A stretch of 43,140 bases of DNA from a virus, in IMG/VR virus record IMGVR_UViG_3300034684_000039, positions 1-43,140 of that record; one strand, 5' to 3'. Below the pieces are notes generated by a model. It had not been told where the DNA came from and ran no database searches. It saw nothing but the letters and a program-made list of their open reading frames with translations. Position numbers and translations under genes: made by a program. This document shows positions 19,610 through 39,882 of this stretch, in pieces. The stretch's first letter is position 1. Each line of letters begins with the position of its first letter.

Positions 19610-22360
19610 ATGTACGAAAAAAAATGGTTTTTAAGGCTTGATACAAAGAAACAATACGACAATGAAGTAATAACTATGGTTAGGCAAGACACTTATAGTA
19701 ATGTATTATATATAGTCTTGTATAATGACTCTATTAAAATGGAAGTCAGCAAAACAACAATAGCAACAGTAATAATTGATAAACCAGATAATACACAAGT
19801 AATAGGTAGTGCAGAGGTTCTGGATAATGGTACATTAAAATATGTGGTTGACTATCAAGCGTTGGCAGCATTAGGTATGGCTAAATTTACTGTTAAATTA
19901 ATAATAGAAGATAATATACTAACAACTACCAGTTTTGTGGTAAATGTAATAAATGACCCTTTTGCAGATTCAGATGGAAGTATAGAATCCACATCTGAAT
20001 ATCCAATACTATCAAATTTAGTTTTAGGAACATCAAATATAATTGCAACAGAAGAAACAAGAGTTGAAAATGAAACACATAGGAAAAAAAACGAAGATAT
20101 AAGAATAGATAATGAAAATGAAAGAATAGCAAACGAGAATATAAGAAAGTCTAATGAGATTACAAGGCAATCTAATGAAACCACAAGACAGAACAATGAA
20201 ACAAATAGGAATACAAAAGAAACAGAAAGACAAACAAACGAAACTACAAGGCAAAATAATGAAGCCACTAGATTATTAAATGAAGATACAAGATTATCTA
20301 ACGAAACAGCTAGACAAAATAATGAAACATCTAGAGTAAATGCTGAGAATGCAAGAAAAGTATTCGAGGAATTTTCAAGTTCAAAAACTTATGTAGTTGG
20401 GAATAAAGTATCTTATTTAGGTTCATCTTATTATTGCATACAAAACTGCACAAATATACTGCCTACAAATACAGATTATTGGCTACTAATAGCTAAGAAA
20501 GGTGAAGGCATAATAGATGTAGTAGATAATGGCAATGGTACAATAACAATATATTATCAAAGTGGTAGCACAGTTGTAAGCAATATATCTATTATCCTAG
20601 AAGATAATCTAACATCTACATCAACTACAAGAGGTCTTGCTGCTAATCAAGGTAGAGTTTTAAATGAAATAAAAGTAGATAAAGTCGCAGGCAAAGGTCT
20701 TTCCGAAAATGATTATACAACTACTGAAAAAAATAAATTAGCGAATATAGAACCTAATGCACAAGTAAACAAAATAGAAGTTGTCAAAAGAAATGGTAGT
20801 GCATTACCAATAAATAATAAAGAAGTTGATATTACAGTTCCAACAGTTATTGATAATTTGACAAGCATAGATACCGATAATGCTTTATCAGCTAATCAAG
20901 GTAAGATATTGAATGACAATATGAATACACATAAATCAAATATTAACCATTCATTTTATGGTATAGCAAGTGGAACAAACTCATATACAGTAACTATATC
21001 AGATATAACATCATTGGTAGATGGTATAAATGTAAGGATAAAATTTACAAATGCAAACACTGGTGCTTGTACTTTAACTATCAATAGCTTAGGTGCAAAG
21101 GGTATTAAAAAATCTGATGGAACAGACTTAGCAAGTGGAGATATATTAGCAGGGCAAATCGTAAACCTGAGTTATAATGGTTCGGTTTTTCAATTAATTA
21201 GTGGAGGGAGTGATTATGTTCAGATTGAATTTAATAATTTCGCAGTACGTTCGGGGGAGATTGTTAGAAGTACTCCTACTTCATTAAGTCAAGCAAGATA
21301 TTATTTAGCAGGAGCAAGTATAGGAGATTATGCACTATTTGCAGGTGGAAAGGATGGTACAACAAATCATAACGTAGTAGATGCTTATACTTCTTCATTA
21401 GTACGTTCTACCCCTACAGCTTTAAGTGTTACGAGAAGAGTTTTAGCAGGAGCAAGTGTAGGAGATTATGCTTTATTTGCAGGAGGATGGAATGGTACAA
21501 CATATTATAACGTAGTAGATGCTTATAATTCATCTTTAACTAGGACTACTCCTACAGGATTAAGTCAAGCAAGGTGGTATTTAGCAGGAGCAAGTATAGG
21601 AGATTATGCAATATTTGCAGGAGGAAATACAGGTTCAGCAAGTAATGTAGTAGATGCATATACAAGTTCGTTAGTACGTTCAACACCTACTGCTTTAAGT
21701 CAAGCAAGGTGGTATTTAGCAGGAGCAAGTATAGGAGATTATGCAATATTTGCAGGAGGATATACAGGTTCAGCAAGTAATGTAGTAGATGCTTATAATT
21801 CATCATTAACTAGAACCACTCCTACTCCTTTGAGTGTATCAAGGTTGGATTTAGCAGGAGCAAGTGTAGGAGATTATGCTTTATTTGCAGGAGGATGGAA
21901 TTATACAACATATTATAACGTAGTAGATGCTTATAATTCATCTTTAACTAGGACTACTCCTACAGGATTAAGTCAAGCAAGAAGTAATTTAGCAGGAGCA
22001 AGTATAGGAGATTATGCTTTATTTGCAGGAGGATATACAGGTTCAGCTAGTAATGTAGTAGATGCTTATAATTCATCATTAACTAGAACCACTCCTACTC
22101 CTTTGAGTGTATCAAGGTTGGATTTAGCAGGAGCAAGTGTAGGAGATTATGCTTTATTTGCAGGAGGATGGAATGGTACAACATATTATAACGTAGTAGA
22201 TGCATACTCTCAAGCTTTCGGAGACATTGACATCCCTATAACTTCTGGTTCAAAATACAAGCTTAACAGCGACACAGAAGTAACAGCAACAACAAGCGGG
22301 GTAATTACAGTCAATACACCGTTGACTGGATATATAAAATATAAGGAAGGAGTTTTGTAA
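19610..22360 (+). CDS. Receptor-binding tail fibre: BppU-like N-terminus, coiled coil and Kelch repeats
   Basis: A 916-aa modular adhesin. Residues about 20-130 resemble the N-terminal attachment domain of baseplate upper proteins (MVRQDTYSNVLYIVLYNDSI; IATVIIDKPDNTQVIGSAEV). About 145-245 is a long heptad coiled coil built on NE-T-R repeats, likely a trimer stalk. Next is a small chitin-binding-like module (VVGNKVSYLGSSYYCIQNC), then linker domains. About 545-865 are seven Kelch-type repeats (GDYALFAGGWNGTTYYNVVD, with LTRTTPTGLSQAR between), predicting a beta-propeller head that binds the host surface. A trimeric fibre is inferred. Unusually, it lies between capsid and connector genes. It starts behind GGGGAGTGATTTA. 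Confidence 0.85.
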   Translation: MYEKKWFLRLDTKKQYDNEVITMVRQDTYSNVLYIVLYNDSIKMEVSKTTIATVIIDKPDNTQVIGSAEVLDNGTLKYVVDYQALAALGMAKFTVKLIIEDNILTTTSFVVNVINDPFADSDGSIESTSEYPILSNLVLGTSNIIATEETRVENETHRKKNEDIRIDNENERIANENIRKSNEITRQSNETTRQNNETNRNTKETERQTNETTRQNNEATRLLNEDTRLSNETARQNNETSRVNAENARKVFEEFSSSKTYVVGNKVSYLGSSYYCIQNCTNILPTNTDYWLLIAKKGEGIIDVVDNGNGTITIYYQSGSTVVSNISIILEDNLTSTSTTRGLAANQGRVLNEIKVDKVAGKGLSENDYTTTEKNKLANIEPNAQVNKIEVVKRNGSALPINNKEVDITVPTVIDNLTSIDTDNALSANQGKILNDNMNTHKSNINHSFYGIASGTNSYTVTISDITSLVDGINVRIKFTNANTGACTLTINSLGAKGIKKSDGTDLASGDILAGQIVNLSYNGSVFQLISGGSDYVQIEFNNFAVRSGEIVRSTPTSLSQARYYLAGASIGDYALFAGGKDGTTNHNVVDAYTSSLVRSTPTALSVTRRVLAGASVGDYALFAGGWNGTTYYNVVDAYNSSLTRTTPTGLSQARWYLAGASIGDYAIFAGGNTGSASNVVDAYTSSLVRSTPTALSQARWYLAGASIGDYAIFAGGYTGSASNVVDAYNSSLTRTTPTPLSVSRLDLAGASVGDYALFAGGWNYTTYYNVVDAYNSSLTRTTPTGLSQARSNLAGASIGDYALFAGGYTGSASNVVDAYNSSLTRTTPTPLSVSRLDLAGASVGDYALFAGGWNGTTYYNVVDAYSQAFGDIDIPITSGSKYKLNSDTEVTATTSGVITVNTPLTGYIKYKEGVL
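21250..22205 (+). repeat. Seven near-identical 135-141-bp repeats coding for Kelch blades
   Basis: Units begin near 21259, 21400, 21537, 21672, 21807, 21945 and 22080. Blocks of about 95 bp or more are identical between the units starting near 21807 and 22080, and the segment AGCAGGAGCAAGTRTAGGAG occurs in every unit. Synonymous sites are conserved as well as coding ones, so the units are recent copies or are homogenised by recombination. Confidence 0.85.
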
Positions 22361-25279: not shown

Positions 25280-26506
25280 ATGGCTACTAATATGGCTTAT
25301 GATGCCAGGACATATACAAGCATATCAGTACACGCTTGGTATCAAGGTACAACAGCGGTAACAAAATGTATCATACAAGGACCCACAGCAGCAGTAACAT
25401 TAACTACAACACCTAAAACTAACTGGACTACTGACCCTCCTGTAAATTTTACCGGCTTAGCACCGGGACAATCATACTCATTTAAAGCATATTTTTATAC
25501 ATCAACAGACACATTAGTTGAAGAAACATCTACTTTTTATTTTACAACTCTTGAATATAGCTCAACTACAGTTAATATAAACACAACTGCAATAGGAGAA
25601 ACATATTTAAACATAAGAGCTTTTTATAGAGGCAACACTGGCGTAACATATTGTGTTATATCTTGTGCAGGAAATGGAATGACCATAAGTGCAGGCGGAA
25701 CAACATATGAATGGACTACAGATTCGGTAACTTTTAGCGGATTAAATCCCGGAACATCATATACCGCATCTGTAACTTTTTATAATGGCTCTGGATATGT
25801 AGCTAGTACTAGTGGAACATTTACTACACTAGCACCATCAGATACAACTCCGCCTACAGTAAGCAATGTAAATTTAACAGCAATACCAGTTACCAACGGA
25901 TACAATGTAAAGATGACTTGGGCAGCTTATGATGATGTAGGGATAGTGAAGCATTGGCTATATAGAAGCTCTCCTAACACACAAAACTATGTATCGGTTG
26001 GGTATGATGTATCGGGAAGTGCAAGAGAATTTACGTTTACAACAGATGCTGATGGAAATTTATTTCAATCTGGAAAAACATATTATTTTAGAGTTAGAGC
26101 TGTAGACGCAGCAGGAAATATATCTACACAGGATAGTGGAACTAAGTCTATTTATATAAGTGCGACTAGACCGCAAAACTGGGCATGGGAATATACAATA
26201 GTAAGTGGAGGTAGTGTATATTCAGTAGTTGGGAAAAAAGTAAATATAATGAGAGCAGCACATTGGAATGACTTTACAACACGAATAAATCAATTTAGAG
26301 CATATAAAGGTTTATCACCTTATTCATTTACTCAAGTTACTAGCTCTACAAGTGGAAGTGCAGTTGTGTCTGCTATAAATCAAGCAATAAATGCAATAAA
26401 TGATATGTTACCAGTAGGAAGCAAGATGTCTACAATAACGGCATCAAATAAAGTCGCTGCAAGTATATTTATAAATTTAAGAGATAAATTAAATAGTATC
26501 CAATAG
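25280..26506 (+). CDS. Fibronectin-III-like fibre protein, host gene of the IscB insertion
   Basis: A 408-aa protein with three Fn3-like modules: VNFTGLAPGQSYSFKAYFYT, VTFSGLNPGTSYTASVTFYN and, after a PSDTTPPTVSNVNLTAIPV linker, GKTYYFRVRAVDAAGNISTQ. The C-terminal domain (IMRAAHWNDFTTRINQFRAY, AVVSAINQAINAINDMLPVG) is helical. It is likely a virion surface protein binding carbohydrates. Its stop codon abuts the left end of the IscB element, so its last 16 bases probably serve as the guide of the adjacent omega RNA. Ribosome site GGTGGTG. Confidence 0.75.
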   Translation: MATNMAYDARTYTSISVHAWYQGTTAVTKCIIQGPTAAVTLTTTPKTNWTTDPPVNFTGLAPGQSYSFKAYFYTSTDTLVEETSTFYFTTLEYSSTTVNINTTAIGETYLNIRAFYRGNTGVTYCVISCAGNGMTISAGGTTYEWTTDSVTFSGLNPGTSYTASVTFYNGSGYVASTSGTFTTLAPSDTTPPTVSNVNLTAIPVTNGYNVKMTWAAYDDVGIVKHWLYRSSPNTQNYVSVGYDVSGSAREFTFTTDADGNLFQSGKTYYFRVRAVDAAGNISTQDSGTKSIYISATRPQNWAWEYTIVSGGSVYSVVGKKVNIMRAAHWNDFTTRINQFRAYKGLSPYSFTQVTSSTSGSAVVSAINQAINAINDMLPVGSKMSTITASNKVAASIFINLRDKLNSIQ

Positions 26507-26746
26507 GGGTCAACTACCCAACGACTAAAGTCGTGGGCTTGATAGCCCTATGTTGACCAGGCTAAGGTTTGAAACAAAACCTACGTTATCTATGTCATGA
26601 CACCCTAGGATGCCCTCCTAGTTCTAGGCTCTGTCGTATAGCATTAAACAGGTGTAGTGGGTTAAGCCAGTGTGTTATACGTGTAAACATAGATAACATT
26701 GCCGAGGGAGATGTTACCTGCGTAAGCAGAGAAAGGAGAAATTCCT
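26507..26746 (+). ncRNA. HEARO/omega RNA of IscB
   Basis: A 240-base leader in front of iscB with dense complementarity. GGTCAAC (26508-26514) pairs with GTTGACC (26552-26558), enclosing an ACGAC/GTCGT hairpin. AGGTTT (26565-26570) pairs with AAACCT (26577-26582). GTTATCTATG (26585-26594) pairs with CATAGATAAC (26688-26697), enclosing CGTATA/TATACG (26635-26640, 26676-26681). AACAT/ATGTT follows, then CTGC-GTAA-GCAG (26718-26729) with a GNRA loop. This is the arrangement of HEARO RNAs, known as the guide RNA scaffold of IscB. The guide should be the bases just 5' of the scaffold, 26491-26506 (AAATAGTATCCAATAG), which are fibre-gene sequence. Confidence 0.85.
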
Positions 26747-28027
26747 ATGGTATTTGTTTTAGATGCAAATAGAAAACCATTATCACCTTGTCATGAAGCA
26801 GTTGCAAGAAAATTGCTTAAACAAGGTAAGGCTGCAATATTTAGAAGATACCCATTTACAATAATTCTTAAAAAATCAGTAGAAGACACTAAAAACAAGC
26901 AAGAATATAGATTAAAAATTGATTATGGTAGTAAGCATACAGGATTAGCTATACTACAAAAAAACAATGTAATATGGTTAGCTCAAATAGACCACAGAAC
27001 AGATATTAAAAAGAAACTTGATGATAGACGTATGTTTAGACGCAACAGAAGAAATAGAAGAACAAGATATAGAAAGCCAAGATTTTTAAATAGAAAAAGA
27101 AAAGAAGGATGGATACCACCTTCACTTGAAAGTAGAGTTAATAATATAAAAACATGGGTTAATAAGTTACAAAAATTAATTCCATTAACTCATATATCTT
27201 ATGAAAATGTTAAGTTTGATACTCAATTAATGCAAAATCATGAAATAAGTGGTATTGAGTATCAACAAGGTACACTTCAAGGATATGAAGTTAGAGAATA
27301 TTTACTTGAAAAGTTTGGTAGAAAATGTTGCTATTGTGGAAAAGAAAATGTTCCATTAGAAATAGAACATATAATACCAAAATCAAGGGGTGGAACAAAT
27401 AGAGTTGATAATCTTTGTTTATCTTGTAGAGAATGTAATCAAAGGAAAGGAAACATGACTGCTGAAGAATTTGGTTATCCTGATATACAAAAACAAGTTA
27501 AACAAACATTAAAGGATACTTCTGTAGTTAATTCTACAAGATGGAAAGTTTATGATGTACTTTGTAATAGTGGTTTAGAAGTTGAATGTGGTACAGGTGC
27601 TTTGACTAAAATGAATAGAATCAAATTAGGATTGCCAAAAGAACATTACTTTGATGCTTGTTGTGTAGGACAAAGTACACCTGATAAATTATATTTTAAG
27701 ACAAAAGATGTTTTGTATATAAAAGCAAAAGGTAGAGGGAGTCATTGTAGAACAAATTTAGATAAATACGGCTTTCCGAGAGGATATTTAGCAAGACAAA
27801 AATATTTCTTTGGTTTTCAAACAGGAGATATGGTTAAAGCTGAAATACCAAAAGGAAAATATAAAGGCATTTGGTACGGAGAAGTTGCATGTAGAAAATC
27901 AGGTAGTTTTGATATTAAAGACAAGGAAGGTCAAAGAGTTGTACAAGGTGTAAATCATAAATATTTTTCAGTTGTACAACACTTTGATGGGTATAGTTAT
28001 AGAAAGGAGGCAGCAATTCTTACGTAG
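26747..28027 (+). CDS. iscB: IscB RNA-guided nuclease
   Basis: A complete 426-aa IscB. The N-terminal PLMP/RRXRR segment is MVFVLDANRKPLSPCHEAVA. RuvC-I is LKIDYGSKHTG with D59, followed by an Arg-rich bridge helix (94-118). RuvC-II is ISYENV with E153. The HNH domain runs from CCYCG (194-198) to CRECNQRKG, with H208 and N222. RuvC-III is EHYFDACCVG with D303. The C-terminal part (FPRGYLARQKYFFGFQTGDM onward) is the target-interaction region. All catalytic residues expected for cutting both strands are present. IscB uses omega RNA to find and cut matching DNA. Its ribosome site lies in a small AGGA/TCCT hairpin at the RNA 3' end. Confidence 0.95.
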   Translation: MVFVLDANRKPLSPCHEAVARKLLKQGKAAIFRRYPFTIILKKSVEDTKNKQEYRLKIDYGSKHTGLAILQKNNVIWLAQIDHRTDIKKKLDDRRMFRRNRRNRRTRYRKPRFLNRKRKEGWIPPSLESRVNNIKTWVNKLQKLIPLTHISYENVKFDTQLMQNHEISGIEYQQGTLQGYEVREYLLEKFGRKCCYCGKENVPLEIEHIIPKSRGGTNRVDNLCLSCRECNQRKGNMTAEEFGYPDIQKQVKQTLKDTSVVNSTRWKVYDVLCNSGLEVECGTGALTKMNRIKLGLPKEHYFDACCVGQSTPDKLYFKTKDVLYIKAKGRGSHCRTNLDKYGFPRGYLARQKYFFGFQTGDMVKAEIPKGKYKGIWYGEVACRKSGSFDIKDKEGQRVVQGVNHKYFSVVQHFDGYSYRKEAAILT

Positions 28028-28089
28028 CGTGTTTAAAATACGCAATTCCTCCACGTGGCTAAAGCCAGTGGCTTCCTTGCGTAAGAATT
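28015..28089 (+). repeat. Right-end hairpins of the IscB element
   Basis: AATTCTTACG (28015-28024) and CGTAAGAATT (28080-28089) are perfect inverted repeats. Between them are GCGT/ACGC and CCAC-G-TGGCT / AGCCA-GTGG hairpins. This is the subterminal foldback expected at the right end of IS200/IS605-type elements. It overlaps the last codons of iscB and may also act as a processing site or terminator. Confidence 0.8.
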
Positions 28090-28099
28090 TGTGATAAAG

Positions 28100-28252
28100 T
28101 TGAAATATGTAATTGAAATGGAAGAATATGTTTTAAACAATTTAAAATTGTTTTTAGAAAGGACAACTATGACAGGTAAAGAAGTTGGTGCATATGCAGA
28201 AATACTAAAGTGTATATCAGAAGCTAAGCCAAAAGAGGTTGGTGATGAATAA
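28100..28252 (+). CDS. Small phage protein whose ribosome site was displaced by the IscB element, 50 aa
   Basis: The frame reads MKYVIEMEEYVLNNLKLFLE, then RTTMTGKEVGAYAEILKCIS and EAKPKEVGDE, a convincing short phage protein. Its stop overlaps the ATG of the next gene (TAATG). No ATG stands at the natural beginning; TTG at 28100 (or GTG at 28091) is the likely start. With the IscB element removed, GGTG would stand 6 bases before the TTG; as it is, no ribosome site remains. Translation may now depend on weak initiation or on an internal ATG at 28169 behind AAAGGA. Function unknown. Confidence 0.6.
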   Translation: MKYVIEMEEYVLNNLKLFLERTTMTGKEVGAYAEILKCISEAKPKEVGDE

Positions 28253-29703: not shown

Positions 29704-32700
29704 ATGATTGATTTAAACAAATATAAAATAACTACTGGCTCATTGTCGCCTGAAGTGAAATCTTTAATAGATAGAAATAAGCAATTTTCTGAAAGACTTA
29801 AAGACAAAGATGAGGAATACAGGAAAAGACAAGAAGAAAAAAGAATACAAGAATTAAAACTTAAGCAAGAAGCATTGCAAAGATATAATGGCGACAAGTC
29901 ATCAAATGGAGTATTCGATAAAATAGACAGGATAGAAAACACTACAAACCCTGTATTAACAAGTAAAACAAATGATAGAGCAACACAAAAATACGACAGC
30001 AAAAGATATGCAAAGAGCTATGCTTATCAAAAGCAAAACTTTGATTATGCAAATGCACTATCCAATGATGTAGGCACTATATATGCCTTTAAGAGAAGCA
30101 TGGGGAAATCTGATGAAGAAATAAAACAAGAGCTTGTACCAAAAGCAAATGATTATGAAGTGGAACAAAAGTTGGCGGAAATTGAAAACAAGCTAAAACA
30201 AGGCAATGAAGGTGTATTGTACAACATACAAGAAGGCTACCTTGAAAAAGAAGTGATGGACTTATTATCAAAAGAAGCTATAAAAAGAATGAATGGATTG
30301 CCTAACAAACTAGACGAAGTAAATAAATTCATAGAAGAACACCCAGAAATGTCGCTGAGTGAAGAAAACGACAACGCATTATATAAAGGTATGAGGTTCA
30401 CAGGCGAATTTGTAAGTCAAACCAAAAACTCAATGGCTTATGCCTCTAAAGATTTAGACTCTTGGGCAACCGCAGCTGCTATAATAGTTGGTGGAATAGC
30501 TGTAGGTGCTGTAACAGGCGGTACTGCTTTGCCCGCTTATGTAGGTGTAACAGCTTCTGCACTAGCTACATTATCGCCTTTCGCAGCTATGGGATTTGGA
30601 ATGAGTTATGGTGCAGCTAAAAAGATGGCAGAGGTTGAAGGTGGGCTTGCATACAACGAATATATACAACAAGGAATACACCCTGACATAGCAAAAGATA
30701 TGGCACAGACAGTAGGTGCTATAAATGGCGTATTAGAAATGGTAGAGATGGGAACTCTCATAACTTGGCTACCCGGTGCTAGTGTAGCTAAAGATTTAGC
30801 TATGAAGAAAGTCAATTCAGAGATGACTAAGAAAATATTAAAGACAGCCGCAGCATATGGAATAAACTTGTCAAGCAATATGCTTCAAGAAGCTGCACAA
30901 GAAAGCACAACTATGTTAGGATTGACGCTTTCAGATTATATGCAAAACGCACCCAACCCTAACACGCTAGATGGTTTAAAAGAATTAAAGAAAACAATGA
31001 CATCAGACGAGTATTTAAGAAGAGTAGGGGATAGTGCTATAGGTGCTGCCGAGAGTATGTGGCTGCTACCTATAGGAAGTGGACTTATAAAAACAGGAAC
31101 CAATCAAATACTAGAAGGTAAGGCTAAGATAAAGCAATCAAAAGGCTTTTACACAGCAGAAGATGTAGAAACAGACGCCTATGTTCAAGAGCAGAAAAAG
31201 CTATTGCTTGATGATGGTGGAGTAATAGATACATTAAGTGAAGCTGTAATAAAAGAATCAAACGCAACAGGTCTTAAATACTTGACAGCTTTAGAACCTA
31301 TGGTAGAAGCATTACTTGCCAGAGAAGATTTAACCAATGGCGAAAAGCAGCTATTGTCTAAAAAATACGAACAGCTTAAATCAGCTATAGAAACAGCTAA
31401 AGAAAAAGTAGTTTTAGACAATCCAGATATAATATTCGAGCCTACGTCTAAAAGCGAAATAGCAGGGAAAGTCTTAAATAGAGAAGTGCCTTTCATAACA
31501 CTAGACAAAGACATATATATAGACTATTACAAAGACGCAGAAGAAAAAGGCATATTGGATAAAGTAATAGATATGACAAACAAAGGCAAGACATATTCGG
31601 AAATAGCAGATGAAGTTGCTAAAATGCTTCCTAGAGGAAAGAAAAATGTAGTAGACGCATCTGTATATATAAGTGCTATAGAAGCTGTGAACAGGGAAAT
31701 AAACGCACAAAAGCAATATAACTTAATTGAAAACCTAGATAAAATGACACAACTGATAAATGCTAAAACAATAGAAGAAGAAACAATAGAGCCACCTACA
31801 CTAGAACAGAACACACAAGAAGAACAAACAACAACAAAAGAACAACCTATGCAAGAAGAACAAACAACAACAGAAGAACTTGCTACAGAAACCACACTCG
31901 AAGAAGAAACTCAACCTACAGTAGAAGCTCAACCTGAAGAAGAAATAACAGCAGAAGAACAAAAGACACTTGAAAAAGTTACAGAGCCAGTTGAAACAAA
32001 AGATGGCAAATACTCTCCATCAGACATAGTAAAAGTGCCTGTGGAAGATATAAGAATAGACCAACAAAGATTTCAGTTTAGAGAAAGCGGGACCACTAAT
32101 AAGTTCAGCGACACAGACTGGAAAGATGAGCTATCTGGTGTATTACTATTATGGGAAGATGACAAAGATGGCACTTTGTATGTAGTAAATGGACATCATA
32201 GATTATTATTGGCAAAGGAAAACAATGTAGACTATATAAACGCAAGAATACTAAAAGATGTTACAGACAAAGAAGCAAGAGCTATGGGAGCTTTGATAAA
32301 CATAGCAGAGGATAACGCAACAGCAGTTGATGTAGCTAAATACATCAATGAAACAGGAAGCACTAGAGAAGAACTGATAAAACTAGGGATATCTCCTAGA
32401 AGTAAAATTCTAAGAGATGGTGAAGCATTATCTAAGCTGTCAAAACCACTATTTAGAAAAGTGGCGACTGGTGCTATGAGCATAGAAAATGCTGTTATTA
32501 TAGGAAACGAGTTGCCTAACAACGAAGAAGCACAAGCATATATTGCTAAAAAGATAAACGAGCTAGAAGCAAAAGATAAAATAATAACTCCATCAATACT
32601 TGAATCTTTAATCAGGATAGAACAGTCAAGCGGGTTTATTGAAGGTGAACAAATAAACCTATTAGGAGAAATAGATAAGAAATCATATGCTTACGAGAAA

Positions 32701-35700
32701 TCCACAATAGTTGATTATGTAAAGAAACAGCTAAAGAATAAAAAGAAACTATTAAAGAATGTAAGTAAAGAAACAAACGCACAAATATTAGAAAGTCTTG
32801 GCAACAAAGTCAACATAGACGAAAACATAAAGCAAATGGAAAGCACAGACCTTGCATTGTATCTATTAGATAAAACAGCGTACTATAAATCAAGTATAAG
32901 CGACATGTTCAATGAATACGCAAAGGAACTTGCAATTACAGACAAACCATTGGCTGTAAAAAATAAAGCCTTGAACGACTTTATAGCGAAGATAGAGAAT
33001 GGAGAACTGTTAAACGAAGTATTCGGAAACAATGAAGTTGTGGAAGAACTAGAAAATCAAGCAAGTTTATTGGAAGCACAAACAGAATTGCTAGGGGAAA
33101 AGATGGTAGAAGTAGTAGAACAACCATCAGTGGAAGTTGTAATAAACCCTAAAGCGTCACAGCTTCTTGTGGAAGAAATGCAACCAGTATTAGATGCTAT
33201 GTCTAAAAACCCTATATTTAATAACTTGATTGTAGAGTTTAATGGCAAGGAAGAAAAAATAGTAAAACTAACTAAGAAGGAGTTGGAAAAGTATGGATAC
33301 GACAATGCAGAAGCAGGAGAATATAGAATCAGTGGATACCTTGAAAGACCTAGAAGAAGAAGGAATGGAGATAACAGCAATAACAATAAATCAAAACTAG
33401 TCCTTACTAATTCAGCAAACAAAGGAACTTTACTGCACGAAGTGATTCACTATGTAGAGCAAATAATACCAGAGATAAACCCAGACCTTGCAAACTTGAT
33501 CGATGATTGGGCGAATGATGTTTACGAACAAGCAAAAGAACAAGGCATAGAAGTATGGGATAGAAAAGAATTACTAGCAAATGCACTTACTTTAGGTGAA
33601 TTTGGATATGCAAGTGATGATATAGCAAAAGCAAATTTAGTAGAAGTAGACCCTGATATAATAGCAGACTTTAAGACCATAGTAAGTCCTGAATTTATAG
33701 AAGCTGTAAAAGGTAAGAAAAAGTCAAAGAAGAACAAACAAATAAAACTTAAATATAAAGGCTATGCTGAAAGACAGTTAAAAGAAAGCACTAAAAAAGA
33801 GGATATAGTAGAAGCTAAAACAGATAGACTGTCTGAAATATCGAATAAACTTGAGAATTCAATCAATGGTGCCGCCTATTATTCAGCAGACCAAATAAAA
33901 AGCATAATGGCCATAAAAACGGAAGAAGGAATGTATGACTATATCATATTTGAAAATGGAGAAGATATAGCAGATGATACAGTAACTTTAGACAAACTAT
34001 TGGATATCATACAAAAGAACGAGCTTATATACGACAAAAAAGAAATACACGAAGAACTACAGCAATATGATAGAACAGTCGTAGAAAACATATTCAACGG
34101 GATTGATGTATTTGACTTTGGAAAAGTTTTAGACGCAGCTAAATCAGGCAATATAAACGCAAGTGATTATGATTTAATATTAAGCAAGTATGTAGACAGA
34201 AACCAAGCAAACCTATTGATAGACGAAATAAGAAAAGCGTCTAAAACAGGTTTTAATTTGCCTAATGATAAAGTATCTATGACACAATTCTTAAACAGGT
34301 TTTTTGATGATGGAACAGACGATACAATTAAAATAGTCTTAACAGAAAACAACAAATATGCTATTGCAAAGCTTAACTTTGAAAATCAAGATACAATTCT
34401 TGATATGAAAATATTCGGAGAGTATGACACATTAAAGAAAGCAATAGACGCATATTTAAACACAGAGCTTAAAGTAGACGCAACTAAGGAAGAATTCTAC
34501 AAAGCATTTAAAGAAGATATGATTTATCTACGTTCTAAAGATGGGGAACATTCAAAATATGTCATATCAAACAGATACAAAGAAGATGTGGTATTAAACG
34601 AGCTAGACAACTACACTTTAGCTTATGCATACAAATACAACAATATACACAAAAACTCTAAACTATCTACATTGACTGAATATACAAAAGAAAAGACTGG
34701 TGGAGAGCCTGTATATATTGACATAAGCAAAACAATAAAATACGAAGATGCAATACAAAAGTACCCTGACGACCCATTATTCACACAACATTTATTACAA
34801 GATGGGTACACAGCAATAACAACAAAAGACACTATAATACCATTGGCACCTATGTTTGTTAAGCCTTTGCACACTACAACGCTATATACCTTCAGCGAAG
34901 TAGGACAAGACAAGATGATAATAACAAAGAATGGCTCATTGCTATTGAATGGATTTAATAGGACTTTCTTGTACAAAGACAAGATATACAAATACAATGT
35001 AAAAGTAAAAGACAGCTATTCTTTGAAAGACTTAAACAGAGTGGATACTCCAATATATATAGAAAATGTAGACAAATTCGACAAAGATGTGGCAAAAGCT
35101 ATACTGGAAGCAGAAAAAACAATGCACAGCACAGTATATCTAGATGGGAAGAAATATACAAACAGCAAAGCACAAATGCCAAAATACGCAGGAGAAATAA
35201 TAGACCCTGACGCTGTCACGATATCATTTACAACAACCACAGATTTAATGAACAAACTTATTGAATTTGATGGCATACCTGTACCGTCTATAGCAATAGC
35301 AAAGGCACCGCCTAAGTCAGCTGACATGGGCAATAACATAGTGTTCTTGTTTAAAGCTGAAACAATAGACCCTGCTGTAAATAAAGGAAACACAATATAT
35401 TCGACTGAAATGTTCACAAGGGAATTTCCAGTAAGAACACCTAATGGAGTAAATGATGTAATCAAAGAAGTAAAAGATTATATAATAAGTAGAACAGACC
35501 ATACAGTAATCGCAAGAAAGATGTTAAACTATTACAACTTTGATGAAACATACGACAGTGTACAATTCTTTACAACAGTATATTCAAATGACCCAATAGT
35601 TAAATATGTATACGCTGTGGATAATGGAATATACAAATACGACAAAGCTATACTTCCTGCAGATATAAATTCTCAATCAAGAGAAGCAATGGCAAAAGCA

Positions 35701-38700
35701 CTGCATAAATATGTATCTGAAATAGATCCTAGAGATGTGGGACAATGGCTCTTGGACTTAGTGTATAAGAAAGACACGAGAATGTATACAAACAAGGCTA
35801 CAAACTTTGTAGACCCAACAGTGCAATCATACTTTGCAGACTTAAAAGCAGACAACCTAGCAAGAATGTTTGCAAACGCACCTAAGCCTGACATAATGAA
35901 TGGAACAATAGACCTTGCTATGCTAAAGGCTTTTTATGCGAAGAAATTTGAAAGTTTTGCAGAAGCACTAGACCACAGGGATATGCTTGTGGCCAGAGGT
36001 GGAGAAACAAATATGCTAGGGTATACGCAAAAAGCATATGAGTTGATAGACAAAATAATAAAAGATAACAAAGAAAATATAGAAAACTATATATCTTCTG
36101 AAAAACAAGAGTCGACAAAAGATATACACGACCAATTAAAAGACCCTGAAAAGTTTATAAAGGAAAATTTCCTAAGCCTTATAGGGCTATATTTCCAAAA
36201 TAAAAAGACCAATAAATTCGATAAATTCGGATACTGGTATGACGACCACGCAGTACCTAAGCAAGACCCTCGCAGAGCTTTTCATATAATGGGGCTAAAA
36301 ATAACAGAAGAACACCTAAACGAATTAGAAACGATACTGAATGATGTTATCAACGAAACAAAAACAAACCAATTTGATGCTGTAGTAGATAGAGTAATAC
36401 CATACAGTGAAATTGCAGCCGCTATAGTGCCTAAGAATATAAATCCAGAAGTTGTAAAATTCCTAAAATCTAGTGGAGTAAAAGCAATAGTGCCTTATGG
36501 CGAGAACTCTTGGAACGGACTAGCAGAAGCTGTTATGAAAGACAACGAACTCTTGTACCAGCTTAAAAAGAATACATCAGATAAGAGAAGGAAAGACTAC
36601 GACAATAAACTTGTAAAAGATACAACAGGAGAACCTTTGACATACAAAGGCAAGACTTTTGACGGGGAAGAAACAGAAGGGAACTATTATGTAATAAGCG
36701 AAAACCCATATATCGTAAAAGACGAAAAAGCGTTCAATGACTTAACCTATAAAGATTTAAGCGATGGAGGATATGACGCTGCAATACTTGTAGACGTAGA
36801 TGGAAACCCTATAAAAGTAAGACCTATAACACAACAACAACTTATACTTGCAGAACCTATGGAAGCTATGGATTTTAATGAATTACCTGAATATTATCAC
36901 ATAAAAGAAACAAGAGATTATAAAGAGAGAAGTTGGGGGAAAACAGTAAGGGATATGAATATCAACGACCCTTGGATAGTAGATATACTTACTGATACTC
37001 AATTTTGGTATGATGTAAAACACAACACAGACACATTTCTCTTAGCAGGTAAGATACTTCAAGAAAAGGGTATAGACTATGTAGAAGCTGTACTTGATTC
37101 AGGAATAGAAGTAACACCTGAAATAGAAGCAGCAGGTTTGATACTGATTGAATATTATAGACAAAATGGGAATAAGTCAGAATTTCTAAACGCTATGGAG
37201 AGAGTCGCTATTAACGCTACTACTGCAGGACAGATAATTCAAGTGCTGTCTCAATTTGGCAAAATGTCTGCAGAAGGCAAGATAAACTATGTTAAGAGAG
37301 AAGTCGAAAAACTTACAACCCCTAAGGATAAAAGAATTGTAGAAGAAAAGACAAAAGAAATAAAAGAAAAGACAGTAAATATTTTAAAAGAAACTCTAGA
37401 TGATAAAAGACTGGGCGACTTCTTAGAAGAAAACAAAGAAGAAATGGCAAAAGTAGCAGACTATGTAGAACAAATTTCTATGACGCCAGAAGAACAAATA
37501 GAAGCGGAGAAACCAACAGTAACTAAAAAAGAAACAGATACTATAGTTGACGAAGCTGTCAAAAAGGTTAAGCAAGAGAGAGCAACAAAAGGGCAGTCAG
37601 AAGGCGTTCAACAGACAATGAATATACCTAGAGATAAAGACTTTTTAAGCAAGAACAAAGACAAGATTGTAGAGATAGTCAGAAATCATTACACCAATCC
37701 AGACAACAAGAGCTTAAAGACAAAGTTAAAGAAAATAGGACTTACAGATTCAGAAGCTGCTATTGTAGTAAGATACACAAAAGAATATATTAGAAGTAGC
37801 TCTGAACAAAAACTGCTAAGTGAAATAAACAATACTGGCGTTCAAGATACTTGGCTTAGCAAATTAATATTCCAAAATGTGCTAGATGGCGACTTTGGAC
37901 AAAGTTTAAAAGCGTTAATAGCAAAGAAAGAAAGAGTGCCTTATTTATCTCAGGACCTTATAGAACATATCTATAAGATGTCAGATATAATAGACAACAT
38001 GCCTGATGGCAAAGACAAAGACAGAGAAATTGCTAAACTTATCAGAGATATAAACGAATATTTACCAGTATCAAACGCAAGGAAAATATCTACATTGCAC
38101 ATAATGGGTATGTTATTAAACATTAAATCTGCACTTAGAAACATATTGAGCAATAGAGGATTTAGAAATGTAGACACCTTTGCTGTACAACTGTTCGGGA
38201 CACCTATAGATAAAATAATAAGTATGAAGTCAAAGAGAAGAACAGTGCTATTTAGACCTATAGCATCATATAACAATCAAAGAAAATACTATAAGACAGA
38301 AATGCCTAACGCAGTATACGAACAAAGACAAGGTATAGATTTTAGCACTATTGATGATAAATTCTCAAGTGGACTAGATATAGGTGATTTATCAAGAACA
38401 TCTATAAGAAGAACATTCCCTAGAAATTCATTACTAGGAAAGGCTGAAACAGCTATGAATGTTTTAATGAGAGCGCCAGATAGAGCGTCTTGGGCTGCAT
38501 CATATTTCGACTCTTTAGATATGCAGATGGAATTGAAAGAAAAAGGGTACAATAAAGATATAACAGAAGAAGAAATGTCAGAAATAGCTAATGCAATAGG
38601 GTTATACAGAACATTCAATGATGATACAAAACTATCCATTATGTTTAGAGAAATGAAAAGAACATTAAATGTAATCGGATTCGGGAAAAGAGAATTTGGT

Positions 38701-39882
38701 ATTGGAAATATCATTACAACTTTCCCAAAAACACCTGCTAATCTTATTATGAGAGGGCTAGATTATAGTCCTATAGGATTGGTTATGACTACGTTTAAAC
38801 TATTGCACGATACATCAGACAATGTATATCTAAGACAAAAACTTGCTGTTGAAGGTTATGCAAGAGCAATAGCTGGTACTGGTCTAACAGGAATAGGAGT
38901 TTTGCTATACAATATGGGCATCATCACATCAGGCTCTCCTGAAGATGAAAGCAAATTGAGAAAGTTTAAACAGTCTATGGGATTAAGAAACTACTCAATA
39001 AACATAAGTGCTATACTAAGGCATTTACAAGGGCAAGAAAATGCAGGAGATTTAAGAAAAGGTGACAAACTATTCTCTTATGACTGGTTTTTACCTTTGT
39101 CATTCCCATTATCTATTGGTGCTGACATAGCAAGTGGAGAGTCTAGTGCAATATCCGTAGCAGATAATTTATTGAAATCTTTACAAGCAGGACTTAATTT
39201 ATACACAGACCAACCATTATTTACAGGGCTTGAAAGATTATTTGGTAGTGAAGATTTAGGAAGCGGTGTTACACAAACACTCAAAAGTGTACCATCTAGT
39301 TTTGTTCCAAGTATAGTATCTCAACTAGCACAATTTACAGATGGAATAAACACAGACCCATACACAGGCTACTCCATACCAGAACAAACAGTCAATCTTA
39401 TCAAAAATAGGCTGCCAGTGCTAAGAGGGACACTACCACAAAGAGTATCTCCATTAGGAGATGGATTGGAATACTATACAGATGACGACACATTCTACAC
39501 TAAATTCTTGAAAGCTTTCTTATCTCCGGGGATAGTAACAGAATACAATCCTAGTGATGAAGCACAGTTTATAATGGATTTAGTCGAGTCTACTGGAAAT
39601 GAAGAATTAATACCACCTAAACCACAAAAACAATACACTTTAGAACTTGATAATGGAGAAAAAGTGATAGTAAAACCTACTCCTGAAGAATGGGAAGAAT
39701 GGCAAAGAAGATTTGGCGAAAACATCAAGAAAGACATAAAATATATTATGAGAAACTATTCAGGTAGGCTTACGAAAGAAGAACTTTCAGACGAAATAAA
39801 CAGAGCTATAAGTGAAAACAAAAAAGAATTTAAGGAATATTTGTTGCAACAGCAAAATAAAAAAGGGTCTAGCAATCGCTAG
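29704..39882 (+). CDS. Giant polyvalent virion/ejection protein, 3392 aa
   Basis: A single uninterrupted frame of 10.2 kb. It starts with charged coiled coil (20-65), followed by a hydrophobic Gly/Ala-rich segment (253-305, ATAAAIIVGGIAVGAVTGG) that could enter a membrane, then an acidic Thr/Gln linker (690-752). A ParB/DdrB-like domain follows (about 770-870, with NGHHRLLLA at 829-837), and a zinc metallopeptidase motif HEVIH (H1245, E1246, H1249) with a later Glu near 1289. A large-polyvalent-protein segment comes next (about 1850-1915, IPVPSIAIAKAPPKSADMGN). A degenerate ADP-ribosyltransferase-like region is near 2310-2375, and the C-terminal polyvalent domain is near 2790-3100 (TTFPKTPANLIMRGLDYSPI). 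Such proteins are thought to be packaged and injected to act early in the host. Domain limits are by eye. Confidence 0.8.
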   Translation: MIDLNKYKITTGSLSPEVKSLIDRNKQFSERLKDKDEEYRKRQEEKRIQELKLKQEALQRYNGDKSSNGVFDKIDRIENTTNPVLTSKTNDRATQKYDSKRYAKSYAYQKQNFDYANALSNDVGTIYAFKRSMGKSDEEIKQELVPKANDYEVEQKLAEIENKLKQGNEGVLYNIQEGYLEKEVMDLLSKEAIKRMNGLPNKLDEVNKFIEEHPEMSLSEENDNALYKGMRFTGEFVSQTKNSMAYASKDLDSWATAAAIIVGGIAVGAVTGGTALPAYVGVTASALATLSPFAAMGFGMSYGAAKKMAEVEGGLAYNEYIQQGIHPDIAKDMAQTVGAINGVLEMVEMGTLITWLPGASVAKDLAMKKVNSEMTKKILKTAAAYGINLSSNMLQEAAQESTTMLGLTLSDYMQNAPNPNTLDGLKELKKTMTSDEYLRRVGDSAIGAAESMWLLPIGSGLIKTGTNQILEGKAKIKQSKGFYTAEDVETDAYVQEQKKLLLDDGGVIDTLSEAVIKESNATGLKYLTALEPMVEALLAREDLTNGEKQLLSKKYEQLKSAIETAKEKVVLDNPDIIFEPTSKSEIAGKVLNREVPFITLDKDIYIDYYKDAEEKGILDKVIDMTNKGKTYSEIADEVAKMLPRGKKNVVDASVYISAIEAVNREINAQKQYNLIENLDKMTQLINAKTIEEETIEPPTLEQNTQEEQTTTKEQPMQEEQTTTEELATETTLEEETQPTVEAQPEEEITAEEQKTLEKVTEPVETKDGKYSPSDIVKVPVEDIRIDQQRFQFRESGTTNKFSDTDWKDELSGVLLLWEDDKDGTLYVVNGHHRLLLAKENNVDYINARILKDVTDKEARAMGALINIAEDNATAVDVAKYINETGSTREELIKLGISPRSKILRDGEALSKLSKPLFRKVATGAMSIENAVIIGNELPNNEEAQAYIAKKINELEAKDKIITPSILESLIRIEQSSGFIEGEQINLLGEIDKKSYAYEKSTIVDYVKKQLKNKKKLLKNVSKETNAQILESLGNKVNIDENIKQMESTDLALYLLDKTAYYKSSISDMFNEYAKELAITDKPLAVKNKALNDFIAKIENGELLNEVFGNNEVVEELENQASLLEAQTELLGEKMVEVVEQPSVEVVINPKASQLLVEEMQPVLDAMSKNPIFNNLIVEFNGKEEKIVKLTKKELEKYGYDNAEAGEYRISGYLERPRRRRNGDNSNNNKSKLVLTNSANKGTLLHEVIHYVEQIIPEINPDLANLIDDWANDVYEQAKEQGIEVWDRKELLANALTLGEFGYASDDIAKANLVEVDPDIIADFKTIVSPEFIEAVKGKKKSKKNKQIKLKYKGYAERQLKESTKKEDIVEAKTDRLSEISNKLENSINGAAYYSADQIKSIMAIKTEEGMYDYIIFENGEDIADDTVTLDKLLDIIQKNELIYDKKEIHEELQQYDRTVVENIFNGIDVFDFGKVLDAAKSGNINASDYDLILSKYVDRNQANLLIDEIRKASKTGFNLPNDKVSMTQFLNRFFDDGTDDTIKIVLTENNKYAIAKLNFENQDTILDMKIFGEYDTLKKAIDAYLNTELKVDATKEEFYKAFKEDMIYLRSKDGEHSKYVISNRYKEDVVLNELDNYTLAYAYKYNNIHKNSKLSTLTEYTKEKTGGEPVYIDISKTIKYEDAIQKYPDDPLFTQHLLQDGYTAITTKDTIIPLAPMFVKPLHTTTLYTFSEVGQDKMIITKNGSLLLNGFNRTFLYKDKIYKYNVKVKDSYSLKDLNRVDTPIYIENVDKFDKDVAKAILEAEKTMHSTVYLDGKKYTNSKAQMPKYAGEIIDPDAVTISFTTTTDLMNKLIEFDGIPVPSIAIAKAPPKSADMGNNIVFLFKAETIDPAVNKGNTIYSTEMFTREFPVRTPNGVNDVIKEVKDYIISRTDHTVIARKMLNYYNFDETYDSVQFFTTVYSNDPIVKYVYAVDNGIYKYDKAILPADINSQSREAMAKALHKYVSEIDPRDVGQWLLDLVYKKDTRMYTNKATNFVDPTVQSYFADLKADNLARMFANAPKPDIMNGTIDLAMLKAFYAKKFESFAEALDHRDMLVARGGETNMLGYTQKAYELIDKIIKDNKENIENYISSEKQESTKDIHDQLKDPEKFIKENFLSLIGLYFQNKKTNKFDKFGYWYDDHAVPKQDPRRAFHIMGLKITEEHLNELETILNDVINETKTNQFDAVVDRVIPYSEIAAAIVPKNINPEVVKFLKSSGVKAIVPYGENSWNGLAEAVMKDNELLYQLKKNTSDKRRKDYDNKLVKDTTGEPLTYKGKTFDGEETEGNYYVISENPYIVKDEKAFNDLTYKDLSDGGYDAAILVDVDGNPIKVRPITQQQLILAEPMEAMDFNELPEYYHIKETRDYKERSWGKTVRDMNINDPWIVDILTDTQFWYDVKHNTDTFLLAGKILQEKGIDYVEAVLDSGIEVTPEIEAAGLILIEYYRQNGNKSEFLNAMERVAINATTAGQIIQVLSQFGKMSAEGKINYVKREVEKLTTPKDKRIVEEKTKEIKEKTVNILKETLDDKRLGDFLEENKEEMAKVADYVEQISMTPEEQIEAEKPTVTKKETDTIVDEAVKKVKQERATKGQSEGVQQTMNIPRDKDFLSKNKDKIVEIVRNHYTNPDNKSLKTKLKKIGLTDSEAAIVVRYTKEYIRSSSEQKLLSEINNTGVQDTWLSKLIFQNVLDGDFGQSLKALIAKKERVPYLSQDLIEHIYKMSDIIDNMPDGKDKDREIAKLIRDINEYLPVSNARKISTLHIMGMLLNIKSALRNILSNRGFRNVDTFAVQLFGTPIDKIISMKSKRRTVLFRPIASYNNQRKYYKTEMPNAVYEQRQGIDFSTIDDKFSSGLDIGDLSRTSIRRTFPRNSLLGKAETAMNVLMRAPDRASWAASYFDSLDMQMELKEKGYNKDITEEEMSEIANAIGLYRTFNDDTKLSIMFREMKRTLNVIGFGKREFGIGNIITTFPKTPANLIMRGLDYSPIGLVMTTFKLLHDTSDNVYLRQKLAVEGYARAIAGTGLTGIGVLLYNMGIITSGSPEDESKLRKFKQSMGLRNYSINISAILRHLQGQENAGDLRKGDKLFSYDWFLPLSFPLSIGADIASGESSAISVADNLLKSLQAGLNLYTDQPLFTGLERLFGSEDLGSGVTQTLKSVPSSFVPSIVSQLAQFTDGINTDPYTGYSIPEQTVNLIKNRLPVLRGTLPQRVSPLGDGLEYYTDDDTFYTKFLKAFLSPGIVTEYNPSDEAQFIMDLVESTGNEELIPPKPQKQYTLELDNGEKVIVKPTPEEWEEWQRRFGENIKKDIKYIMRNYSGRLTKEELSDEINRAISENKKEFKEYLLQQQNKKGSSNR

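What the first reader, a model, noticed from the sequence alone, without database searches (positions are those of the whole stretch)
26491..28090. Phage-borne IscB with a guide that should match its own empty insertion site: RNA-guided homing candidate
Seen: an intact IscB with all RuvC and HNH residues, an adjoining HEARO/omega RNA, no transposase, and insertion between two late genes. The bases where the guide should lie (26491-26506) are the end of the upstream fibre gene. In the predicted empty site they would be followed by GTGATA, which fits the NWRRNA target-adjacent motif reported for OgeuIscB. Inference: the nuclease would spare its own genome, because the element interrupts the target-motif junction, but cut a co-infecting relative without the element at that site. 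Repair would then copy the element in, like a homing endonuclease but RNA-guided, and competing phages would be damaged.
Basis: partly seen in the sequence, partly recalled or inferred. Interest (0 to 1): 0.88.

Follow-up and report, generated by a model that had tools for sequence, protein, structure and literature searches.

The report
Phage-borne RNA-guided IscB mobile element
A virus of bacteria carries a small mobile element that encodes a Cas9-like cutting enzyme and its guide RNA; the guide copies the DNA beside the element, so the enzyme should cut relatives that lack the element at that spot, which could help the element spread between viruses.

Summary
An intact IscB gene (26747-28027) and a full HEARO/omega RNA (26509-26717) form a 1582-base element (26509-28090) among late genes of a 43-kb phage record without a Y1 transposase match. 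Relatives in unrelated contexts fix both ends. An element of equal length, 93.4% identical, sits in an unrelated 185-kb phage contig, so it moves between phages.

Empty sites could be read for two sister insertions (76-77% IscB identity) in Anoxybacillus. The window's own empty site was not found (0 matches in viral contigs). Cutting and homing are inferred by homology, not shown.

New here: right junctions favour translation starts. Of 41 IscB loci, 25 lie at a start codon or 5-15 bases before one, against 446 of 2621 control sites (p about 5e-10). In the window's clade the junction usually splits a Shine-Dalgarno sequence. Junctions were partly hand-anchored, so an unbiased repeat is needed. 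I rate it a new member of a known kind.

The parts
25280..26506 (+). late gene with an fn3 match, fibre-like by inference; its 3' end and stop codon supply most of the guide
   Evidence: ORF; Pfam fn3 9e-9; phrog_37329 of unknown function
26493..26508 (+). predicted 16-base guide (left flank, directly 5' of the omega RNA scaffold)
   Evidence: left end by homology; single occurrence in the window at up to 3 mismatches, followed by GTCAAC; 16-nt guides suffice for OgeuIscB (PMC9640706 passages)
26509..28090 (+). whole mobile element, 1582 bases, no target-site duplication expected
   Evidence: 93.4% ungapped match of the same 1582 bases in L004 with unrelated flanks; sister-element empty sites
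26509..26717 (+). HEARO / omega RNA scaffold
   Evidence: RF02033, 159.6 bits, E 5e-34
26747..28027 (+). IscB RNA-guided endonuclease, 426 aa
28042..28080 (+). right-end hairpin of the element
   Evidence: sequence; similar right ends in L004-L007, L009, L038-L042
28091..28094 (+). GTGA, predicted target-adjacent motif in the right flank
   Evidence: GTGA follows the right ends read in this clade and is present in uninterrupted alleles, GTGG in one
28100..28252 (+). downstream small gene, likely TTG start 9 bases after the G of GTGA; the reconstituted junction GGGGTGAT would be its Shine-Dalgarno (inference)
   Evidence: ORF 28091-28252; phrog_18977 E 1.2e-4, profile position 5 aligned with residue 9 of that ORF

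Best explanation
An ISC-type (IscB/HEARO) mobile element has landed between two late genes of a phage. On landing it took the 16 bases to its left as the guide of its omega RNA. IscB loaded with that RNA should recognise guide plus GTGA, a site present only in alleles without the element. It spares its own genome because the scaffold start GTCA stands where GTGA would be. Cutting empty alleles in co-infecting or daughter genomes, followed by repair from an occupied copy, would keep and spread the element at this site. Movement to new sites would need a Y1 transposase supplied in trans. Shown by sequence: element ends, intact nuclease and RNA, movement between unrelated phages, the junction rule in sister elements, and purifying selection. 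Inferred: RNA guiding in this protein, cutting, homing, and trans transposition.
For: HEARO and IscB intact. An element of the same length and 93.4% identity lies in an unrelated 185-kb phage contig with no flank similarity; dN 0.043, dS 0.274 between the two IscB genes. A 98.7% match over the last 378 bases lies in a third phage contig. Empty alleles: Anoxybacillus site 1 uninterrupted in 7 of 9 genus genomes (1 is the occupied genome, 1 had no match), all 7 with GTGATGA at the junction; site 2 uninterrupted in 5 of 7 (1 occupied, 1 no match), four with GTGA and one with GTGG. A sibling phage contig from the same sample as L006 has TTTTGAG|GTGGTTATATG where L006 has ATTTGAG|element|GTGAAATAATG. 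GTGA right flanks: 9 of 9 loci read in the A. pushchinoensis genome (19 matches there in all) and 5 of 9 loci inspected in the Methanohalobium genome, the other 4 having no readable right end. HEARO upstream of 78 of 80 viral IscB loci. Y1 transposase: none in the window, 4-10 matches in each of the three Anoxybacillus genomes searched, one each in the L004 and L008 records.
Against: The window's own empty site was not found. Guides differ from the empty alleles of sister species at 1-4 of 16 positions, and in one case by an indel, so one guide may fail on diverged relatives. The L006 comparison rests on a short intergenic stretch: the upstream genes differ and blast does not align the left flank. 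L006 also has a 12-base duplication of its left end that would disrupt its guide. Promoter-like sites around the element are fewer than in shuffles (10 against a mean of 18.2). No expression or cutting data exist here.
Confidence: 0.72

Rival explanations
1. The element is an ordinary passenger insertion sequence that landed from the bacterial host through a host Y1 transposase. Its nuclease only guards against loss at excision (retention), with no homing between phages.
For: 76-77% identical elements exist in Anoxybacillus genomes, multicopy in one (19 matches, most of them fragments and one a 39% relative), and those genomes hold Y1 transposases. The TnpB retention role is described in the preprint PMC11870625 (passages).
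Against: A search found 121 relatives in viral contigs; 6 of the 8 virus records searched have no Y1 match, though records may be fragments. The nearest full-length copy found is in another phage contig (92%), against 76-77% for full-length bacterial copies and 88% for one partial copy in a bacterial MAG. This does not exclude it: retention and homing use the same cutting step.
Confidence: 0.35
2. The nuclease has been taken over by the phage as a weapon against competing phages, and spread of the element itself is secondary.
For: Placed in the late gene region; purifying selection on IscB. HNH homing enzymes of phages are known to exclude relatives (recalled).
Against: In the window the guide matches only the element's own insertion site, so only close relatives could be hit; the mobile-element ends are preserved and the element moves between unrelated phages.
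Confidence: 0.12
3. The element is a dying remnant with no RNA-guided activity.
For: No Y1 transposase match in the record; no activity data; a homologue with an in-frame stop exists (L063).
Against: Full-length RNA and protein, invariant catalytic residues, dN/dS about 0.16 against L004.
Confidence: 0.08

Closest known systems
OgeuIscB and the IscB/HEARO (OMEGA) family
   Same: RRXRR domain, RuvC and HNH residues, HEARO RNA upstream with the guide expected at its 5' end; fold matches 8csz, 9k30, 7xht
   Different: 426 aa, 16-20% identical in the OgeuIscB fold alignments; target motif by junction is GTGA instead of NNRR (PMC9640706 passages)
DtIsrB and other IsrB nickases
   Same: fold match 8dmb with TM 0.78 normalised on the target; NTGA/TTGA motif close to GTGA (PMC9581776 passages)
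   Different: IsrB lacks the HNH domain (recalled; its residual region is called HNH linker); this protein has it
IS200/IS605 TnpB gene drive on plasmids (preprint PMC11870625)
   Same: guide records the insertion site; empty copies are cut (passages)
   Different: TnpB, guide at the 3' end of its RNA (recalled); plasmids, not phages
HNH and intron homing endonucleases of phages (recalled)
   Same: predicted to cut element-free alleles and be copied in
   Different: recognition by a guide RNA that changes at each landing, instead of by protein

Membership tests
IscB (OMEGA) | IscB protein family score | tested here: met
   NCBIfam guided_IscB 451.1 bits, cut-off 175
IscB (OMEGA) | catalytic RuvC and HNH residues | tested here: met
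   D59, E153, D303, H208, N222, N231 invariant in 34 of 34 rows; residue roles by alignment and recall
IscB (OMEGA) | omega RNA directly upstream | tested here: met
   RF02033 26509-26717, 159.6 bits
IscB (OMEGA) | IscB fold | tested here: met
   AlphaFold mean pLDDT 85.0; the ten best PDB matches are IscB and IsrB complexes, though with rmsd of 5-17 over long alignments
IscB (OMEGA) | RNA-guided DNA cleavage | not testable with these tools
   needs biochemistry
IscB (OMEGA) | guide equals left flank, motif in right flank (window's own site) | tested here: inconclusive
   met for two sister insertions in Anoxybacillus; no uninterrupted allele of the window's own site found (0 hits)
IS200/IS605 transposon | own Y1 transposase | tested here: not met
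   PF01797 0 matches in the record
IS200/IS605 transposon | subterminal hairpin, no target duplication, fixed target motif | tested here: met
   right-end hairpin and GTGA; empty alleles of sister elements without duplication
Homing element | presence and absence at the same site in relatives | tested here: inconclusive
   seen for sister elements in bacteria and for more distant phage IscBs, not for the window's own site
Homing element | transfer to an empty allele after cutting | not testable with these tools
   needs co-infection

The most novel reading that the evidence does not exclude
IscB elements form a class of self-reprogramming, RNA-guided homing elements of phages whose landing motif (RTGR) coincides with translation-start signals, the Shine-Dalgarno tail GGTGA or the start codon ATGR. 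They therefore settle at gene starts of unrelated phages and drive themselves through phage populations without carrying a transposase.
Probability: 0.35. Interest if true: 0.8.

Novelty: new member of a known kind. Interest (0 to 1): 0.55.

Why it matters
If IscB drives itself between phage genomes, then guide-RNA drive, reported for TnpB on plasmids, also shapes phage genomes, and phages may be a route by which relatives of Cas9's ancestors spread. The bias to translation starts would explain how such elements persist in gene-dense genomes. Natural phage pairs with and without an IscB make the idea testable.

Tried and rejected
Searches that led nowhere: phage relatives by P0003 (the only confirmed relative is a near-identical copy of this phage), by the terminase (a 100% copy plus 5 at 35-49%) and by the fibre-like protein (a 100% copy plus 2 at 30-35%); the empty junction in viral contigs (0) and in the 207 loci held (0); right flanks of the window, L004-L009 and L119 (8 loci, 1120 bases) in the phage collection (no match; of the 37 flanks printed I gave 8); the L119 neighbour gene (itself only); the window's capsid-like gene in the phage collection (six records at 23-34%). 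An automatic hairpin picker for right ends chose wrong hairpins for several loci, the window included, and was dropped for hand-read anchors.

Rejected idea: that elements regularly bring a new ribosome-binding site. In the start-codon class (15 loci, the three clade-1 loci left out), 6 of 15 occupied alleles keep a Shine-Dalgarno match of at least 4 bases before the start, against 10 of 15 reconstituted empty ones.

Not used as direct parallels: the Staphylococcus phage IscB-like genes (about 28-31%) and the Nodularia one (47%) are distant, and their HEARO RNA is below the Rfam cut-off (no hit in L028-L031).

Full report
What is there. The window is the whole of a 43140-base virus record; whether the genome is complete was not told. 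Position 26509-26717 is a full-length HEARO RNA at 159.6 bits. The ORF 26747-28027 is IscB by NCBIfam (451.1 bits, cut-off 175), with six RuvC and HNH residues invariant in 34 aligned homologues, a model at mean pLDDT 85.0 and IscB/IsrB complexes as the ten best fold matches. No Y1 transposase match exists in the record. Between the window and L004 the IscB gene shows dN 0.043 and dS 0.274, so the protein is under purifying selection.

Ends of the element. Blast against relatives in other contexts stops near 26509 and 28090. The copy in L004, a 185-kb phage contig, matches 1582 bases without gaps at 93.4%, and the flanks share nothing. L009 matches 98.7% over the last 378 bases, where its contig begins; L005 matches 85.6%, L006 72.7% and L007 71.8%. 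The element therefore moves between unrelated phages. The end is uncertain by up to two bases, because element and target both begin with GT.

Guide and motif. For two sister insertions in Anoxybacillus (IscB 77% and 76%), other genomes of the same genus hold the uninterrupted site. Site 1: of 9 genomes searched, 7 are uninterrupted, 1 is the occupied genome and 1 has no match. All 7 have GTGATGA directly at the junction, one with a 5-base insertion to its left; the 16 guide positions differ at 1, 1, 2, 4, 4 and 4 bases, and in the indel case cannot be compared position by position (the script printed 9). Site 2: of 7 genomes, 5 are uninterrupted, 1 is the occupied genome and 1 has no match. 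Four have GTGA and one GTGG, with 1 or 2 guide differences; a second, partial match in one genome has a 3-base insertion. There is no target duplication. In the A. pushchinoensis genome, where IscB has 19 matches including fragments, 9 of 9 loci that I read are followed by GTGA; in the Methanohalobium genome 5 of 9 loci inspected had a readable right end, all followed by GTGA. Hence the guide of the window should be 26493-26508. In the window that sequence is followed by GTCAAC and occurs nowhere else at up to 3 mismatches. The published motifs for DtIsrB (NTGA, TTGA at 60 deg C; PMC9581776, passages) and OgeuIscB (NNRR; PMC9640706, passages) are compatible with GTGA; NWRRNA is recalled.

The window's own empty site. 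It was not found. A degenerate 20-base junction gave 0 matches in viral contigs, and three protein searches found only near-identical copies of the phage or distant relatives. The nearest phage-level case is L006: a contig from the same sample (L182, capsid protein 80% identical) has TTTTGAG|GTGGTTATATGTTTGATATAAAAG where L006 has ATTTGAG, the element, and then GTGAAATAATGTTTGATATAAAAG. This rests on a short intergenic stretch read by eye: the genes upstream differ and blast does not align the left flank. L006 also has a 12-base duplication at its left end, which would spoil its guide.

Distribution. A search with an IscB alignment found 121 relatives in viral contigs, of which 80 were returned. 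A HEARO match lies within 450 bases upstream of 78 of these 80 (the two without are L101 and L126, and L126 has matches further away). Of more distant phage IscBs, one (Nodularia phage kac68v162) is missing from the same site in 4 sister genomes, two of them listed twice; I aligned one of the four (kac68v161) and take the others from their coverage. A Staphylococcus phage IscB-like gene is present in 7 of 55 matching records, while 43 hold both flanks without the middle; I aligned two of the 43.

Junctions at translation starts. I read the right-end hairpin of 45 loci (viral, bacterial and archaeal, the window included) from printed sequence and took the first RTGR at least 4 bases later as the junction. 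Four loci lacked a left flank. Of the other 41, 18 have a start codon at the junction and 7 have one 5-15 bases downstream: 25 of 41, against 446 of 2621 RTGR sites in the same flanks (Fisher p 5.5e-10, odds ratio 7.6). 'Start codon' here means an RTG with at least 40 open codons and a stop close upstream, not an annotated gene. Bias is possible: I had seen many ATG junctions before choosing the hairpins, loci without a hairpin that I could read were left out, and the left end of L006 was set by hand. In the window's clade 7 of 9 junctions rebuild a Shine-Dalgarno match of 6 or more bases across the junction, against 35 of 200 GTGA control sites (p 2e-4). A start codon lies 7-12 bases downstream in 11 of 23, against 37 of 190 (p 0.006); the 5 archaeal copies have none. 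The simplest reading is that the RTGR motif is common at gene starts and that selection removes insertions inside genes. The element does not regularly restore a binding site (6 of 15 occupied against 10 of 15 empty).

How it probably works. The omega RNA would be made by read-through from the late genes; promoter-like sites there are fewer than in shuffles (10 against 18.2). It would carry the upstream gene's last bases as guide. IscB would cut guide plus GTGA in genomes without the element, and repair would copy the element in. Only the sequence logic is shown. TnpB acting as a gene drive on plasmids is reported in a preprint (PMC11870625, passages). IscB retention and homing work, and an ATGA/GTGA insertion rule of HEARO, are recalled; I asked for four papers on these and they were not held.

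Novelty. Phage HEARO annotations exist (PMC13346280, passages), and few HEARO nucleases sit with a transposase (PMC9755519, passages). Among the papers listed by eight searches of the library I saw none about phage IscB homing or a bias to translation starts; the lists are capped and the library lacks most subscription papers. The element itself is a new member of a known kind.

Noticed in passing
21265-22203: Tandem 135-base repeats in the 916-aa gene; all 33 differences between the window and its 99.7% copy L003 lie at 21964-22169, inside this array. Hypervariable region or assembly artefact.
   Followed up: partly
L030 2660-4290 versus L033 880-980: A Staphylococcus phage IscB-like insertion sits at the start of a resolvase gene and carries a changed copy of that gene's first codons, as homing elements do.
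   Followed up: partly
L031 2660-4320, L035 3560-3700: In Golestan101-M another IscB-like element lies between a stop codon and the GGGGATA before the next start; PSU4 has the uninterrupted junction, though its following gene differs.
   Followed up: partly
L028 2720-4340 versus L032 2120-2220: A Nodularia phage IscB has split a gene annotated as transposase beside an IS607-family transposase (tnpB by inference); the sister phage kac68v161 has it whole.
   Followed up: partly
L006 5748-5771: The left end GTCAACAACCCA is duplicated in tandem, which would place scaffold sequence in the guide.
   Followed up: no
L007 5709-5760: The element directly follows the right end of another element of the same family.
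   Followed up: no
L052 and L076, contig 3300034684_000299: One 185-kb phage contig carries two different IscBs, 92% and 53% identical to the window's, plus one Y1 transposase far away.
   Followed up: no
L083, record G006: A 16-kb virus record holds three IscB copies.
   Followed up: no
29704-39882: A 3392-aa ORF without NCBIfam match.
   Followed up: no
1211-1437: 15-base tandem repeat, 15 copies.
   Followed up: no
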